DNA of 34,503 nt, from positions 1-34,503 of the forward strand of contig JAAFGT010000043.1 of the NCBI GenBank assembly GCA_010365215.1. Reading direction: 5' to 3'. This document shows positions 17,041 through 23,078 of this stretch, piece by piece (position 1 is the first letter of the stretch; every line of letters starts with the position of its first letter). The position numbers and the translations under genes are program-made. Origin of the DNA: Acidipila sp. (GTDB lineage: Bacteria > Acidobacteriota > Terriglobia > Acidiferrales > UBA7541). Below the pieces are notes generated by a model. It did not search any database. It was not told where the DNA came from and saw only the letters and a list, made by a program, of their open reading frames with translations.

Positions 17041-18687
17041 TCAACAGCCGAATGAACCGGGATTAAGGCCGTTGGAAACTACCCTGTTGCATCGATTCGT
17101 CTCTGCCAGTCCATGCCATGCATTGAAGTTTTGGTCCTCGCAGCAGTCGTTTGCATTTCCCGGCGGAGGGTTCGGGACCAACAGGGCGGCGGCGATGGCA
17201 ACCACCGCAGCGGCGACCAGACCTGCGACAATGCTCCGGCTAAATCCAGAGCGATCCGCACTCCGCGCGTCAACGGGCGATCTATTATTACGCGCTTGCG
17301 CCGGCGAGTTCGGAAGGTTGGGGCGCGCGGCGAGGACGGGGTAGAGCGCGGGGTCGCGTGCCGCGGCAGCTCTGGCATTGTATTTCGCCACCTGCTGTTG
17401 AAGCATCGCAATATTTCCGCCCTGGCACGATTGTGCCTTCGCTTGCCAACTCTGCGCCTGGGCGGTGTCCGCGGGAACGCCACTCCCTTTGGTGTACATA
17501 TCTGCGATGGCCTGCATGGCCACGCAATTGCCGCCGGCGGCGGCCTTCTTATATGCCTCCATCGCTTTTAGGTGCCAGTAGGGCGGATCGCCGCCCAGCT
17601 TTCCCATATTGTATTCAAAGCCCAGCGCCAGCCACCCTCTGGGGTCGCCCGCATCGGCGGCTTTTGTCGCCCAATAGGTAGCGCGATTACCGCTAACTGG
17701 CGTTTTTTGGTCGGCGTAAACATCGGAGAGCAGCGGCATCGCCAGAACATAGTTCGCTTCAGCGGCCTTTTGCAGAAGATGGAATGACCGCGACGCGTCA
17801 GCCGTCACGCCCAATCCGTCGTGATAAAGGATAGCCAATTCATAGGCCGCCTGCGCGTCACCGTGATCCGATGCCTTGTGATACCAGTAGGCCGCCGCGG
17901 GATAGTCAGGTTGCGCGCTTCCGTCCGGGGCCAGAGTGCTGTACTGATAGAGCAGCCCGAGAGTGCGTTGGGCCCTCACATCTCCCGCATCGGCCTTCGC
18001 GGTAAGGTCGCGTTTCAGTTGCTCGATACCGCTGGCATTGGCCCCCGGTTTGCCCAGCACGGGCTTGTTCAGTCCAGTCGGCTGCGCTCCGTAAGTGAAG
18101 CTGGTCTTGCCCAGCGCCGCGAGTGCCCTTGCGGCCATCGCCTTCTCTTGCTCCAGGCCGATCTCGCTTGGGCCGATCATCAAGCGCGTTGTGCCTCCCA
18201 GGAACACAAACAGCGTCACGTTATTGGGCGCTCCGATCCAGAAGGCCGCATCGCCCAGACCGGGCAGATCCGTCGGATGGTCGTAGGTGCGGGTATCGAC
18301 TTGCTTCCGAGCCTCGTCCACGGCGTGAGCGTTGGGCGTCGATGAGTACCGGACTTCGAGGCGGACGTTAACTACCTTCGGCGGCTTGGGCCGGTTGGGC
18401 GTTGCATAGTTAAACGTGAAGTTGGTAAAGCGGCAACCCTGATCAGCCGTGCCGGAAGTGAAATCAGGATCGAGAAGCGAACGAAAGGGCTCAGAGGGTT
18501 GCGGTGGTTCCAGCGTCACTCCAAGGATGGCCTCGGCGTCGGCTTTGGAGAGCAACTCGCATGCTGTTTTATTTTGCGCGTAGGCGGGCAAGCCCGAAAG
18601 CACGCATAGACCGGACAGGAAAACCAGACACGTCGCAAGATTTCGCACCGTGCGGAGAATTTTAAAATCAATTCTTCTCAGCTTCAT
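17041..18687 (-). CDS. Exported Sel1-repeat protein with C-terminal membrane helix
   Basis: 548 residues from the ATG at 18685-18687, preceded by GGGAGGT. A signal peptide (LATCLVFLSGLCVLSGLPAYA) leads into an N-terminal domain (about 35-190: ACELLSKADAEAILGVTLEPP, LPGLGDAAFWIG), which resembles small secreted sensory domains of unknown role. Several Sel1/TPR-like repeats follow (about 220-430), such as GDAQAAYELAILYHDGLGV and GNCVAMQAIADMYTKGSGV. Near the end is a single hydrophobic segment (IVAGLVAAAVVAIAAALLV, about 490-510) and a short Cys-containing tail. Sel1 repeats mediate protein-protein contacts. It converges with the ypdA-like gene and has no obvious functional partner nearby. Confidence 0.82.
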   Translation of the reverse strand: MKLRRIDFKILRTVRNLATCLVFLSGLCVLSGLPAYAQNKTACELLSKADAEAILGVTLEPPQPSEPFRSLLDPDFTSGTADQGCRFTNFTFNYATPNRPKPPKVVNVRLEVRYSSTPNAHAVDEARKQVDTRTYDHPTDLPGLGDAAFWIGAPNNVTLFVFLGGTTRLMIGPSEIGLEQEKAMAARALAALGKTSFTYGAQPTGLNKPVLGKPGANASGIEQLKRDLTAKADAGDVRAQRTLGLLYQYSTLAPDGSAQPDYPAAAYWYHKASDHGDAQAAYELAILYHDGLGVTADASRSFHLLQKAAEANYVLAMPLLSDVYADQKTPVSGNRATYWATKAADAGDPRGWLALGFEYNMGKLGGDPPYWHLKAMEAYKKAAAGGNCVAMQAIADMYTKGSGVPADTAQAQSWQAKAQSCQGGNIAMLQQQVAKYNARAAAARDPALYPVLAARPNLPNSPAQARNNRSPVDARSADRSGFSRSIVAGLVAAAVVAIAAALLVPNPPPGNANDCCEDQNFNAWHGLAETNRCNRVVSNGLNPGSFGC

Positions 18688-18875
18688 CCGGCACCTCCCG
18701 TTCGAATCCCACCAACGAATCCACCGGGGCAATGCCGTGTCTCGTAACCATTCTGGAGACCGGGTGACCACCTTGCGCCGGGAATTTTGAACAGTATCTT
18801 GAAACGGGCGCACCGTCCACTGCTGCGCTGGCAGTTCAAAGGAATCGGCAACGGCCTGGCGCCACCGCAGGCGGT

Positions 18876-18910: not shown

Positions 18911-19384
18911 ATGGCATCCATGGTGGGCGAAGTGGTTGGCACGGTGCGCGCGCTGGTCAAGGGATTCAGCGTCACCTTCCGCAATATGCTGGGCAAGACC
19001 ACCACGGAAGCTTATCCCGACGCCCCCGCCACGCTGATGCCGCGCTACCGTGGCATTCACGTCCTGCATCGCGACGACGGCGGCCTGGAAAAGTGCGTGG
19101 GCTGCTTTCTCTGCTCCGCGGCATGCCCGGCAAACTGCATCTACATCGAGGCTGCGGAAAACACCGACGCCCAGCGCATCTCCGCGGGCGAGCGCTACGC
19201 CAAGGTCTACAACATCGATTATTCGCGCTGTATTTTCTGCGGTTATTGCGTCGAAGCCTGCCCCACCGATGCCATCACCCACGGCCACGGCTTCGAGCTG
19301 GCCACCTACGACATCAATTCGCTGGTCTACCGAAAAGAGCGCCTGCTCGAGCCCGGCCCGGCGAAGAAAACCGCGCACGTTTAG
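18911..19384 (+). CDS. nuoI: NADH-quinone oxidoreductase subunit I (solitary)
   Basis: 157 residues with the two [4Fe-4S] motifs of NuoI: C62-VG-C65-FL-C68-SAA-C72-P and C107-IF-C110-GY-C113-VEA-C117-P. They carry the linker NIDYSR and the tail TDAITHGHGFELATYDINSLVYRKERLL typical of the family. NuoI sits in the peripheral arm of complex I and passes electrons through clusters N6a and N6b. No other nuo gene is in the window, so this is an orphan copy; complex I genes elsewhere in the genome would be needed for it to work in that complex. Two ATG codons (18911, 18920) are possible; the first matches the promoter geometry. Confidence 0.93.
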   Translation: MASMVGEVVGTVRALVKGFSVTFRNMLGKTTTEAYPDAPATLMPRYRGIHVLHRDDGGLEKCVGCFLCSAACPANCIYIEAAENTDAQRISAGERYAKVYNIDYSRCIFCGYCVEACPTDAITHGHGFELATYDINSLVYRKERLLEPGPAKKTAHV

Positions 19385-19616: not shown

Positions 19617-20441
19617 TCAGCTCAGCCGGGTCAGCAGGACCAGGCAAAATAGTCCGCAGCCCACCAGCACGAACGAAGCGGGCTCCGGGGTGGGCGTGAT
19701 TACGCCACCGCCGCCGCTTAATCCGCCGCTGTTCCCGCAGGAGGTGCCTGCCGCGCCGATGGAGATGTTATTCGTGTCCAGCGTTACGCCGCCATTGTGC
19801 GCCAGAGCCCGGCCGCACGAGATATTGGCACCGGTATTCAAGGTGATGCTGGTCAGCGCGAGAATATTTCCCAGGAACGATGTTCCGGTCCCGAGCGTCG
19901 CGGAGCTGCCCACCTGAAAAAACACGCTGGTATTGGCGCCGGGGTTGATGATCGTCACCGACGAGGCCGAGGAGGTGATCAGCGTGCTGCCAATCTGGAA
20001 AATGAATTGCTGATTGGCCTTGCCCTGAGCGTTGAGAATCAGTCCTCCGGTCAATGGCGCCGACGTGGAAAACGTATAAACGCCCGCCGTCAGTGTTTGG
20101 CCGCCTAGATTCTGGCCCGACAAGTTCGCAGTGGACGGCAGGTTCTTTAAAGTGTTGTAGGCATTAATGAGATCGATTTGCGCCTGGTTCGTGACGGCAC
20201 CAGGACCTAGGATCGTTCCACCGGTTACGACTCCCGGTGGAAAACCGGTAATCGCGCTGCCTCCGGAAACACCTACATTCCCGTTAATGGTGCTGGCTCC
20301 GGTATTGGTTACCGTAGATCCACCCAGGACCGCAAAACTGCTTGCGCTCATCAGAATGGAATTGGCGGAAGCAGGTGTGGCCAGTAGGGAACTAAGCAAT
20401 GCTAACGCTGGTAAAAGCAATAGAGACTTCACAATCTTCAT
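19617..20441 (-). CDS. Ice-binding-like DUF3494 protein with PEP-CTERM signal
   Basis: 274 residues. A signal peptide (LLLLPALALLSSLLATPASA) is followed by one DUF3494 domain (about 28-235). Typical features are FAVLGGSTVTNTGASTINGNVGVSGG, TNQAQIDLINAYNTL, GGQTLTAGVYTFSTSAPLTGGLILNAQG and a low-complexity beta-solenoid made of T/S/N/G. The last residues are a sorting signal, PEP at about 252 followed by a hydrophobic run and a final Arg (PEPASFVLVGCGLFCLVLLTRLS-like). Members of this family bind ice in some microbes, while many others have no tested activity. PEP-CTERM proteins are cut and placed at the cell surface or in exopolysaccharide by an exosortase (EpsH/XrtA). AGGAG precedes the ATG. 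It lies downstream of sulP on the same strand. Confidence 0.9.
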   Translation of the reverse strand: MKIVKSLLLLPALALLSSLLATPASANSILMSASSFAVLGGSTVTNTGASTINGNVGVSGGSAITGFPPGVVTGGTILGPGAVTNQAQIDLINAYNTLKNLPSTANLSGQNLGGQTLTAGVYTFSTSAPLTGGLILNAQGKANQQFIFQIGSTLITSSASSVTIINPGANTSVFFQVGSSATLGTGTSFLGNILALTSITLNTGANISCGRALAHNGGVTLDTNNISIGAAGTSCGNSGGLSGGGGVITPTPEPASFVLVGCGLFCLVLLTRLS

Positions 20442-20505
20442 CGTCGGCTCCTGTGGGCTAGAAGCTCTGTCAATAGTCTTGGCTGATACTATCCTCTCAA
20501 ATCAG

Positions 20506-20529
20506 ACTGTCTGTCTTTATTTGGACAGT
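20506..20529. promoter_or_regulatory. Inverted repeat upstream of the ice-binding protein gene
   Basis: ACTGTC (20506-20511) and GACAGT (20524-20529) face each other across 12 AT-rich bases, inside an AT-rich patch between sulP and the DUF3494 gene. It could be an operator or a leader hairpin for the minus-strand gene. A weak promoter (TTGAGA, 17 bases, ACTATT on the minus strand) overlaps the following 60 bp. There is no T-run, so it is not a good terminator. Confidence 0.4.
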
Positions 20530-20570
20530 AGCGTAAATTTATATTTAGCTTCCACTACAGGCAGGACGTG

Positions 20571-22298
20571 CTAGAGCTGGGCGTTGGCTGGTACTAACGG
20601 TACTGAGGCGTGCAACTTTTCCGCGCGGGCTAATGCTTCCTCGATATTGGCGCAAATATTTTCGCGTCCTACGTGCTGTTCGAACTCCGCCTGCTTCATC
20701 AGCCGCGCGGGTTGGTGCATGGCGCCACAGAGAATCATGGCGCGCCCGGAGGCGTGCAGCTCGCCGGCCAGGCGTTCGAGCGCCAGCACGCCGGTGGCGT
20801 CGATGGCATTCATGTTGCGCAGGCGCAGAATCACCACCTGTGGCAGCTCGGGAATGCGGTCGCTGATTGCCGAAATCTTGTCGGTGGCGCCAAACAGGAA
20901 CGGCCCGTGGATGCGGAAGATGGTTAGATAAGGCGGAAAAACTTTGTCCTGCAGACTGTGCGCGCGCCCGTGATGGATATATTCTTCGGTCACGCGGGTG
21001 ACCGTGGTGGTGATGGTCACTTTGCGGATGTAGAGAAGCGCCGCCAGGATCATCCCCACTTCCACGGCCACGCTCAGGTCGGCCATTACCGTCAGACCCA
21101 GCGTCACCAGCCACACGCTGATATCGGCGGTGCTGAGCTTGAGCAGCTCGGGAATCTGCCCCCACTCGCCCATGTTGTAAGAGACCATCATCAGAATTGC
21201 CGCCAGCACGGCCAAGGGAATAAATCGCGCCAGCGGCGCGGCGAACAGCAACACCCCCAGCAGCGTCACCGCGTGAATCATCCCGGCCAGGGGAGTCTGC
21301 CCGCCCGAGCGAACGTTGGTAGCCGTGCGCGCAATGGCTCCGGTCGCCGGCAGGCCGCCGAACAGCGGCGAAACAATGTTGGCGAACCCCTGCGCGATCA
21401 GCTCGACGTTGGGGTTGTGTCTGTCGCCGGTCATGCGGTCGGCCACCACCGCCGACATCAGCGACTCGATGGCCCCCAGCACGGCGATGGTGATGGCCGG
21501 GCGCAGCAGCGTGTGAAGGATCTCCACGTGGAACTGCGGCACCACGATGTGCGGCAATCCTTGTGGAATGCCGCCGAAGCGCGAGCCGATGGTCTCGATG
21601 TGCAATCCCAGCGCCCAGGCCGCAGCCGTGCCGCAGAAGAGCACCACAATCATTCCCGGCGCGCGCTTGATATGCGCGGAGAACAGCACCAGAAGCAGCA
21701 GCGAGACCAGCGCCAGCAGGGAAGCGGCCACGGAAAAACTCGAGAAGTTCCGCGCCAGGGCCGCCATTCGCGGCAGAAACGCGGCGGGCACGTGCTCGAG
21801 CGAGATGCCGAAGAAATCCTTAATCTGCGTGCTGGCGATCAGCAGCGCGATCCCGTTGGTGAAGCCGACCACTACGGGGCGGGGAATGAATTTCACCGCG
21901 CTGCCCAGGCCGCTGAGCCCGGCAAGCACCAGCAGCACGCCCGCCATCATCGTGCACATGAACAGCCCGGCAACACCATAGGTGGCGATGATCCCCGCCA
22001 CCACCACTACAAACGCGCCGGTGGGCCCACCAATCTGCACGCGCGAACCGCCCAGCGCGGAAATAATAAACCCGGTGACGATCGCGCAGTAGATCCCCGC
22101 CTGCGGCGTCAGCCCGCTGGCAATGGCAAACGCCATAGCCAGCGGCAGCGCTACCAGCCCCACGGTGACGCCCGCCACCAGATCCTTCAGGAACGTGTGC
22201 GCGTCGTAATCGCGCAGGCAGACGACGGATTTCGGCATCCAGCGGTAAAACGCGGCGCTGGCCGGGGCGGTAGCGGGCGATTGGTTTGTGGCACTCAC
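20571..22298 (-). CDS. SulP-family anion permease with STAS domain
   Basis: 575 residues. The transporter part (about 30-420) has ten or more hydrophobic segments and the SulP signatures DLVAGVTVGLVALPLAMAFAIASGLTPQAGIYCAI and GGSRVQIGGPTGAFVVVVAGI. The C-terminal STAS domain (about 450-560) includes RIHGPFLFGATDKI and VILRLRNMNAIDATGVLALERLAGEL, the pattern seen in SLC26/SulP proteins. These carry sulfate, bicarbonate, chloride or dicarboxylates; the substrate cannot be read from the sequence. It starts at GTG (22296-22298) after an A-rich stretch with no clear Shine-Dalgarno. There is no sulfate-assimilation or carbonic anhydrase gene beside it to suggest the ion. Confidence 0.93.
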   Translation of the reverse strand: MSATNQSPATAPASAAFYRWMPKSVVCLRDYDAHTFLKDLVAGVTVGLVALPLAMAFAIASGLTPQAGIYCAIVTGFIISALGGSRVQIGGPTGAFVVVVAGIIATYGVAGLFMCTMMAGVLLVLAGLSGLGSAVKFIPRPVVVGFTNGIALLIASTQIKDFFGISLEHVPAAFLPRMAALARNFSSFSVAASLLALVSLLLLVLFSAHIKRAPGMIVVLFCGTAAAWALGLHIETIGSRFGGIPQGLPHIVVPQFHVEILHTLLRPAITIAVLGAIESLMSAVVADRMTGDRHNPNVELIAQGFANIVSPLFGGLPATGAIARTATNVRSGGQTPLAGMIHAVTLLGVLLFAAPLARFIPLAVLAAILMMVSYNMGEWGQIPELLKLSTADISVWLVTLGLTVMADLSVAVEVGMILAALLYIRKVTITTTVTRVTEEYIHHGRAHSLQDKVFPPYLTIFRIHGPFLFGATDKISAISDRIPELPQVVILRLRNMNAIDATGVLALERLAGELHASGRAMILCGAMHQPARLMKQAEFEQHVGRENICANIEEALARAEKLHASVPLVPANAQL

Positions 22299-22662
22299 TA
22301 GTTTTTTTTGAGCGGACGGGAATTATCTTCCTTTTTCGGTTGCGATCCCACGATAGCACGCGCAGCCCGTTGCAATCCGCGCGGGTAACACGCAAGTTTC
22401 CACGCGAACCACGGATTCCGTCCGGCGCACGGGCACCCGCCGTCCGGGAGGGCCGTGCCCGTGCTGGAGGAGAGCATCGCGCGTGATGCAGGAACGGAAT
22501 CTGCAGGGTCACGCTTCGTTTTTGTTGGAGAGGCGTTTACTTCGCTCTTACGGCCGGGGCTCCTAGGCAAAGCGAGGGTTGGTTACCCTCGTCTTATACG
22601 CGGGGGGTTTTCTTCAACGCCTTGCCCCGCAATGCTATGATAGATTTGCCGCGGGAGGCAGC
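22299..22662. other. Divergent intergenic region with two hairpins and hicA promoter
   Basis: 364 bp between divergent sulP and hicA. Two palindromes are present: arms GCACGGGCA (22427-22435) and TGCCCGTGC (22456-22464) around 20 bases, and CGAGGGT-TGGTT-ACCCTCG (22573-22591). Neither has a T-run, so they look like repeat-type hairpins. A promoter for hicA is likely: TTCAAC (22613-22618), 17 bases, TATGAT (22636-22641), about 22 bp from the start codon. No gene was found here. Confidence 0.5.
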
Positions 22663-22851
22663 GTGAAGCTCCGCGATTTGTTACGTCTGCTGGAGGATGA
22701 CGGTTGGCGTTTGGTACGCACCCGAGGAAGCCATCGGCAGTTCAAGAATGCGAGCAAGCCTGGCACGGTCACCGTGGCAGGCAAACCTGGCGTTGATGTT
22801 CCACCCGGAACTCTGAACGCCATTCTCAAGCAAGCCGGGCTGAAGAAATAA
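22663..22851 (+). CDS. hicA: HicA-family mRNA interferase toxin
   Basis: 62 residues from GTG 22663, with GGGAGG six bases upstream; the in-frame extension further upstream has no start signal. The sequence is a complete HicA fold: KLRDLLRLLEDDGWRLVRTRGSHRQFKN with the catalytic His24 in GSHRQF, then VDVPPGTLNAILKQAGL. HicA cuts mRNA through this dsRNA-binding-like fold, and the adjacent HicB neutralises it. The two genes are 11 bp apart and form one operon with its own promoter. The reader should note there is no transposase or integrase next to the pair. Confidence 0.94.
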   Translation: MKLRDLLRLLEDDGWRLVRTRGSHRQFKNASKPGTVTVAGKPGVDVPPGTLNAILKQAGLKK

Positions 22852-22862
22852 GGGAGTCTACG

Positions 22863-23078
22863 ATGCGCTACATGGTGGTGATCGAGCGCGGAGAAAAAAG
22901 CTGGGGAGCACATGTGCCCGACCTCCCCGGTTGCATTGCTGTCGCCGAGACGCGGGGGGAAGTCGTTCGACTTCTTCGCGAGGCCATTGACTTCCACATC
23001 CAGGGCCTTAGGGAAGATGGTTTGCCAGTGCCACAGCCGAGTTCCGAGAGTGAGATTGTCGAAGTCGGCGCCTCATAA
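22863..23078 (+). CDS. hicB: HicB-family antitoxin, short form
   Basis: 71 residues with the partial RNase H fold of HicB: YMVVIERGEKSWGAHVPDLPGCIAVAETRGEVVRLLREAIDFHIQGLREDGLPVPQPSS. The PDLPGC motif and the final DGLPVPxP strand are typical. Unlike longer HicB proteins it has no C-terminal helix-turn-helix or ribbon-helix-helix domain, so it probably neutralises HicA but may not repress the operon alone. AGGGAG lies before the ATG. It converges with aspA. Confidence 0.93.
   Translation: MRYMVVIERGEKSWGAHVPDLPGCIAVAETRGEVVRLLREAIDFHIQGLREDGLPVPQPSSESEIVEVGAS

What the first reader, a model, noticed from the sequence alone, without database searches (positions are those of the whole stretch)
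19617..20441. Ice-binding-like domain exported with a PEP-CTERM signal
A signal peptide, a full DUF3494 domain and a PEP-CTERM end are joined in one protein. This would place a possible ice-binding protein at the surface or in the exopolysaccharide, suggesting a role in freezing tolerance or adhesion. No exosortase is in the window.
Basis: partly seen in the sequence, partly recalled or inferred. Interest (0 to 1): 0.5.

Follow-up and report, generated by a model that had tools for sequence, protein, structure and literature searches.

The report
Surface-exported ice-binding-like protein
An uncultured bacterium carries an ice-binding-like protein with an end signal that probably sends it to the cell surface; proteins built this way are already known, so this is an ordinary new example, although some relatives seem to pair such a protein with its own sorting enzyme.

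Summary
The minus-strand ORF 19617-20441 (274 aa) has a signal peptide (by eye), a full DUF3494/Ice_binding domain (E 1.5e-54) and a PEP-CTERM-like end. The AlphaFold2 model matches solved ice-binding proteins (7bwx Z 33.0, 6eio Z 31.5), and 17 of 24 outward positions of the predicted ice face are Thr/Ser.

Ice activity is untested. Weak point: the tail scores below Pfam's cut-off and has one Arg, the fewest basic residues of 66 tails.

DUF3494 plus PEP-CTERM is published (Nostoc nIBP, PMC7783341, passages), with ice-structuring activity of the recombinant protein. This is a new member of a known kind. PEP-type tails go with an exosortase in the class: 34/36 genomes against 15/25.

Side finding, not in this genome: in a related family, one exosortase clade lies beside a DUF3494 gene in 9 of 20 cases; four loci read have PAPSS-tailed DUF3494, exosortase and EpsI.

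The parts
19617..20441 (-). Gene for the 274-aa DUF3494 protein with PEP-CTERM-like end
   Evidence: ORF list; PF11999 E 1.5e-54
20448..20452 (-). AGGAG, ribosome-binding-like site 6 nt before the ATG
   Evidence: Read from the sequence
20364..20441 (-). Signal peptide, residues 1-26 (by eye)
   Evidence: Lys near the N-terminus, Leu-rich core, A-S-A before N27; no predictor run
19764..20330 (-). DUF3494 / Ice_binding domain, residues 38-226, beta-solenoid
   Evidence: Pfam, genome search, AlphaFold2 block means 89-98 over residues 31-230, VIA-align Z 33.0 to 7bwx
19776..20318 (-). Span of the six predicted B-face (ice-face) segments: residues 42-47, 126-131, 152-157, 179-184, 197-202, 217-222
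   Evidence: Mapped by hand from AnpIBP segments (PMC7277481 passages) through the alignment; 17 of 24 outward positions Thr/Ser
19620..19694 (-). PEP-CTERM-like tail, residues 250-274, from the Pro-Glu-Pro region to the end; a single Arg after the helix
   Evidence: PF07589 14.4 bits and 18.8 bits, cut-off 20.7; comparison of 66 tails

Best explanation
A surface-displayed DUF3494 protein. The signal peptide takes it across the inner membrane; the hydrophobic tail holds it there until the genome's XrtA-type exosortase cuts near the PEP motif and passes it to the outer surface or the exopolysaccharide. There the rigid, flat, Thr/Ser-rich B face binds an ordered surface, most likely ice or ice-like water, and limits recrystallisation next to the cell. 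Shown here: intact gene, domain, fold match, Thr/Ser face, tail motif, exosortase and exopolysaccharide locus in the genome, co-occurrence of such tails with exosortases. Inferred: cleavage, final location, ice as the ligand.
For: PF11999 E 1.5e-54. Best solved relatives are ice-binding proteins: 6eio E 9.2e-37; the 31 Foldseek matches with E <= 0.001 are ice-binding or antifreeze structures; 7bwx Z 33.0, 6eio Z 31.5. B face 17 of 24 Thr/Ser, P 5e-7 against the domain's own composition. XrtA locus, 10 other PEP-CTERM proteins. Tail-exosortase association 34/36 against 15/25, P 0.002. The protein falls in a 51-member clade (support 0.949) with Nostoc PEP-tailed proteins; recombinant Nostoc nIBP structured ice (PMC7783341 passages).
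Against: Tail below Pfam's cut-off and with one Arg, fewest of 66. No sigma-54 site upstream. The face is shared by almost all of the 36 aligned relatives, so it is not specific for ice. Two of 36 genomes with a PEP-type tail had no exosortase found (assemblies 86-87% complete). No cold-linked neighbour gene among those scanned.
Confidence: 0.55

Rival explanations
1. The protein is exported and displayed as above, but its flat repetitive face binds another regular surface (mineral, polysaccharide, another cell): a surface adhesin without a freezing role.
For: DUF3494 proteins occur in tropics and hot springs, and a mineral-like ligand has been proposed (PMC7783341 and PMC6892780, passages). 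The next fold after the ice-binding structures is the ComZ pilin, Z 13.5. In 80 named loci the domain is joined to many kinds of surface anchor.
Against: All close solved relatives found are ice-binding proteins, and a PEP-CTERM member of the same larger clade structured ice as a recombinant.
Confidence: 0.33
2. The tail no longer works as a sorting signal: the protein stays in the inner membrane or periplasm, or is released by another route.
For: One Arg only, fewest of 66 tails; below the curated score.
Against: The PEP motif stands at the usual place after the domain; the tail helix has the highest hydropathy of those listed (2.65); a relative of the same family has a similar short end with two Arg (L097).
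Confidence: 0.1

Closest known systems
nIBP of Nostoc sp. HG1 (PMC7783341; passages read)
   Same: Signal peptide, uncapped DUF3494 domain, PEP-CTERM end, genome with EpsH-type exosortase and exopolysaccharide genes; Thr/Ser b side.
   Different: Other phylum (here inferred acidobacterial); the window tail has one basic residue, whereas the Nostoc tails of the same clade (such as L182) end FNKRFRKGW. nIBP's ice activity was measured, this one's was not.
EfcIBP (PDB 6eio) and AnpIBP (PDB 7bwx)
   Same: Same fold: Z 31.5 and 33.0, 41 and 40% identity; AnpIBP S153 and T156, needed for full activity (PMC7277481 passages), correspond to S179 and T182.
   Different: No PEP-CTERM end was seen in the solved chains; this protein adds a Gly-rich linker and the tail.
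PEP-CTERM/exosortase (EpsH, XrtA) sorting system (PMC1569441; passages)
   Same: PEP motif plus hydrophobic helix; exosortase with C, NxxR and HxxxG motifs, EpsI and PrsT, 10 further substrates.
   Different: Only one basic residue at the end; no sigma-54 site found upstream of this gene.

Membership tests
DUF3494 / Ice_binding (PF11999) | Domain match over the curated cut-off | tested here: met
   185.3 bits against 28.7, profile 1-207 of 208
DUF3494 / Ice_binding (PF11999) | Triangular beta-solenoid with one long helix | tested here: met
   AlphaFold2 model with helix 82-99 and strands; Z 33.0 to 7bwx, 200 residues, rmsd 1.2
DUF3494 / Ice_binding (PF11999) | Flat B face rich in outward Thr/Ser | tested here: met
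   17 of 24; positions mapped by hand from AnpIBP
Ice-binding protein (function) | Measured ice shaping, thermal hysteresis or recrystallisation inhibition | not testable with these tools
   Needs purified protein
PEP-CTERM protein | N-terminal signal peptide | tested here: inconclusive
   Clear by eye; no predictor available
PEP-CTERM protein | Pro-Glu-Pro motif followed by a hydrophobic helix at the C-terminus | tested here: met
   PEPASFVLVGCGLFCLVLL; hydropathy 2.65; helix 264-273 in the model, low confidence
PEP-CTERM protein | Cluster of basic residues at the very end | tested here: inconclusive
   One Arg; fewest of 66 tails, commonest value 4
PEP-CTERM protein | Score over the curated Pfam cut-off of 20.7 bits | tested here: not met
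   14.4 bits, 18.8 bits; hence called PEP-CTERM-like, not filed as a certain member
PEP-CTERM protein | Exosortase and further PEP-CTERM proteins in the same genome | tested here: met
   One exosortase, XrtA over cut-off, 10 other PEP-CTERM hits over cut-off
PEP-CTERM protein | Cleavage by the exosortase and delivery to the outer surface | not testable with these tools
   Needs an exosortase mutant and mass spectrometry

The most novel reading that the evidence does not exclude
DUF3494 is a general lattice-binding module that bacteria fit to whatever surface-sorting route they have (PEP-CTERM, VPLPGA, IPTL, LPXTG-like, autotransporter-like, PAPSS). In one acidobacterial family it even has its own exosortase: a DUF3494 gene with a PAPSS-like tail beside an exosortase of a separate clade and an EpsI gene, an enzyme that would recognise PAPSS-like instead of PEP tails. 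The window protein is the common version that shares the genome's XrtA.
Probability: 0.5. Interest if true: 0.45.

Novelty: new member of a known kind. Interest (0 to 1): 0.3.

Why it matters
It shows that exosortase-sorted ice-binding-like proteins, reported for Nostoc, are frequent in this acidobacterial class as sampled here. If the dedicated exosortase cassette of the relatives is real, it is a one-enzyme, one-substrate pair whose substrate carries a soluble, foldable, assayable domain, which would make the little-understood exosortase reaction directly testable.

Tried and rejected
Chance match: rejected. The domain E-value is 1.5e-54 and the tail ranks right after the 10 clear PEP-CTERM hits of the genome.

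Sigma-54 control, as described for proteobacterial PEP-CTERM genes: a consensus from recall matched 6 of 10 positions upstream of the window gene, no better than shuffles (0.995 of them reach it); among the 10 other PEP-CTERM genes one, in L014, matched 10 of 10. Not supported here.

Recent foreign origin: gene GC3 0.67 against 0.75-0.82 for five of six neighbours, but the sixth (Sel1) is 0.665. Inconclusive. In the tree the window's nearest nodes have weak support (0.452 and 0.794).

Exosortase beside the window gene: none; it is on another contig. A home-made exosortase profile found none in the 80 named loci, whose flanks were up to 8 kb where the contig allowed.

They share no sequence block (0 of 31).

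Rows dropped. The tail test uses 61 of the 75 class genomes with DUF3494; the other 14 had only long multidomain or partial hits that I did not fetch, and some of the 61 have further hits not examined. Tails were sorted by eye and include variant motifs (PAPSS; PEL in L116). Exosortase present means E <= 0.001, not over cut-off. Relatedness was not corrected for. Of 42 candidate rows, 35 plus the window protein went into the structure alignment; 7 with long or odd tails were left out. Those rows came from the best 80 of 426 relatives, so they are not a random control for the Thr/Ser count. The automatic labels miss some tails (L127 and L128 carry TPEPGT but are labelled 'other'), and its 66 tails include a few duplicates between the two sets (such as L097 and L169).

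VIA-align saw only the 111 chains that Foldseek ranks highest; folds not listed are not excluded.

Full report
Observation. The minus-strand ORF 19617-20441 encodes 274 aa. Pfam places Ice_binding (DUF3494) at residues 38-226, E 1.5e-54, and PEP-CTERM at residues 250-269 with 14.4 bits, below the cut-off of 20.7. A signal peptide is plain by eye. Neighbours are a SulP-type transporter (20571-22298, minus), a NuoI-like protein (18911-19384, plus), a Sel1-repeat protein (17041-18813, minus) and a HicA/HicB-like pair (22579-23078, plus). Of the nine proteins scanned none is a sorting or exopolysaccharide gene.

Genome. The window lies in a 4.1-Mb assembly of 91 contigs, 97.8% complete. One exosortase was found, at C7:152588-153301, 222 bits. 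The surrounding stretch (L036) is an XrtA-type locus: the exosortase scores 228.6 bits against XrtA's cut-off of 208, EpsI 125.7 against 42.8 and PrsT 338 against 312. The export protein, chain-length protein, XrtA-associated ATPase and tyrosine kinase hit the XrtA-system models but stay below those cut-offs. The exosortase contains EACSGIR, NALR and HEFEG, in line with the putative C, NxxR and HxxxG triad (PMC1569441, passages). Ten PEP-CTERM proteins score over cut-off; the window protein is eleventh with 18.8 bits, the next hit has 13.6. Two further DUF3494 proteins in the genome end right after the domain.

Lineage. Four relatives drawn by the genome tool are the same contigs, block for block, as named records titled Acidobacteria bacterium: G270 and JABCZD010000005.1, G054 and CADEFM010000019.1, G368 and JAPKZA010000289.1, G291 and LNFE01000302.1. 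G270 is in the window's family. I infer an acidobacterial lineage.

Structure and face. AlphaFold2 on 36 rows gives mean pLDDT 85, block means 89-98 over residues 31-230, low in linker and tail. The 31 Foldseek matches with E up to 0.001 are ice-binding or antifreeze structures; VIA-align gives 7bwx Z 33.0 and 6eio Z 31.5, and the first other fold, the ComZ pilin, 13.5. With the B-face segments of AnpIBP (PMC7277481, passages), mapped by hand through, the 24 outward positions read STTT, TSPT, STIS, SSTG, TSTN, GGTD: 17 Thr/Ser, P 5e-7 against the domain's composition, tied seventh of 36 with eleven others, median 16.5. AnpIBP S153 and T156, whose change to Tyr cut activity to 17%, correspond to S179 and T182. 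As the aligned relatives share nearly the same face, it marks a regular-lattice binder and does not prove ice.

Tail and exosortase. In the class sample DUF3494 occurs in 75 of 399 genomes and an exosortase in 251 of 399. For 61 of the 75 I read C-termini: genomes with a PEP-type tail have an exosortase in 34 of 36, those without in 15 of 25 (Fisher P 0.002; relatedness not corrected). In the nearer sample of 61 relatives the window protein has homologues in 7 genomes and exosortase occurs in 27. The window's tail has the fewest basic residues of 66 tails, one, the commonest value being four. I therefore call it PEP-CTERM-like.

Other anchors. Among 80 named loci of many phyla (the best 80 of 426 relatives) the domain is followed by PEP-CTERM ends, a VPLPGA end (L159), IPTL-type ends (such as L175, L198, L221; in L175 the motif reads VPTL), LPXTG-like ends (L176, L205), long autotransporter-like C-termini (such as L200, L231) or a PAPSS end (L208) (the names of these signals are from recall). 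The window protein falls in a 25-member clade (support 0.945; 21 labelled PEP) within a 51-member clade (0.949; 38 labelled PEP) that also holds the four Nostoc proteins.

Side finding, outside the window's genome. In 237 genomes of another family of the class, the exosortase next to a DUF3494 gene in L083 belongs to a separate group: 20 hits with 57% identity or more and E below 1e-86; the other 111 hits under the limit of 1e-60 have 53% or less and E above 1e-71. Reading together, 9 of the 20 lie directly beside a DUF3494 gene; of the 111 I found none within 20 kb of one. Tails there read [VTA]P[AL]P[SP][ST]. One more of the 20 is beside a different protein with a TPAPSS tail (L245). Of the remaining ten, eight were looked at and showed no such tail within 1.5 kb, and two were not fetched. 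In L083, L085 and L111 the order is DUF3494, exosortase, EpsI on one strand; in L039 the DUF3494 gene is divergent. The EpsI proteins score 94.8 to 107.4 bits against 42.8, and the four exosortases pass only the general exosortase models, no named subtype. Against a strict pairing: the PAPSS-tailed DUF3494 protein of L208 has no exosortase beside it.

Literature. DUF3494 with PEP-CTERM was reported for Nostoc HG1, with at least 23 more in GenBank (PMC7783341, passages); the recombinant structured ice, one preparation only after detergent treatment. Searches for ice-binding with exosortase, DUF3494 with Acidobacteria, PEP-CTERM with exosortase and Acidobacteri and exosortase with DUF3494 found no paper in the open-access library, which lacks most subscription journals.

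Verdict. The description is right. A new member of a known kind.

Noticed in passing
L039:3677-6192, L083:5955-8252, L085:4131-6727, L111:1028-3318 (other genomes, not the window): DUF3494 gene with a PAPSS tail beside an exosortase of a separate clade and an EpsI gene: looks like a dedicated sorting cassette.
   Followed up: partly
L159, L175, L198, L221, L176, L205, L200, L231, L208: DUF3494 domains joined to many different C-terminal surface signals in different phyla.
   Followed up: partly
window 22579-23078: HicA/HicB-like toxin-antitoxin pair on the plus strand.
   Followed up: no
window 20500-20540: Imperfect palindrome TGTCCAAATAAAGACA upstream of the gene, absent upstream of the 10 other PEP-CTERM genes of the genome by the same pattern; may be chance.
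   Followed up: no
L014, about 89 bases before the chosen start: A full match to the recalled sigma-54 consensus upstream of another PEP-CTERM gene of the genome.
   Followed up: no
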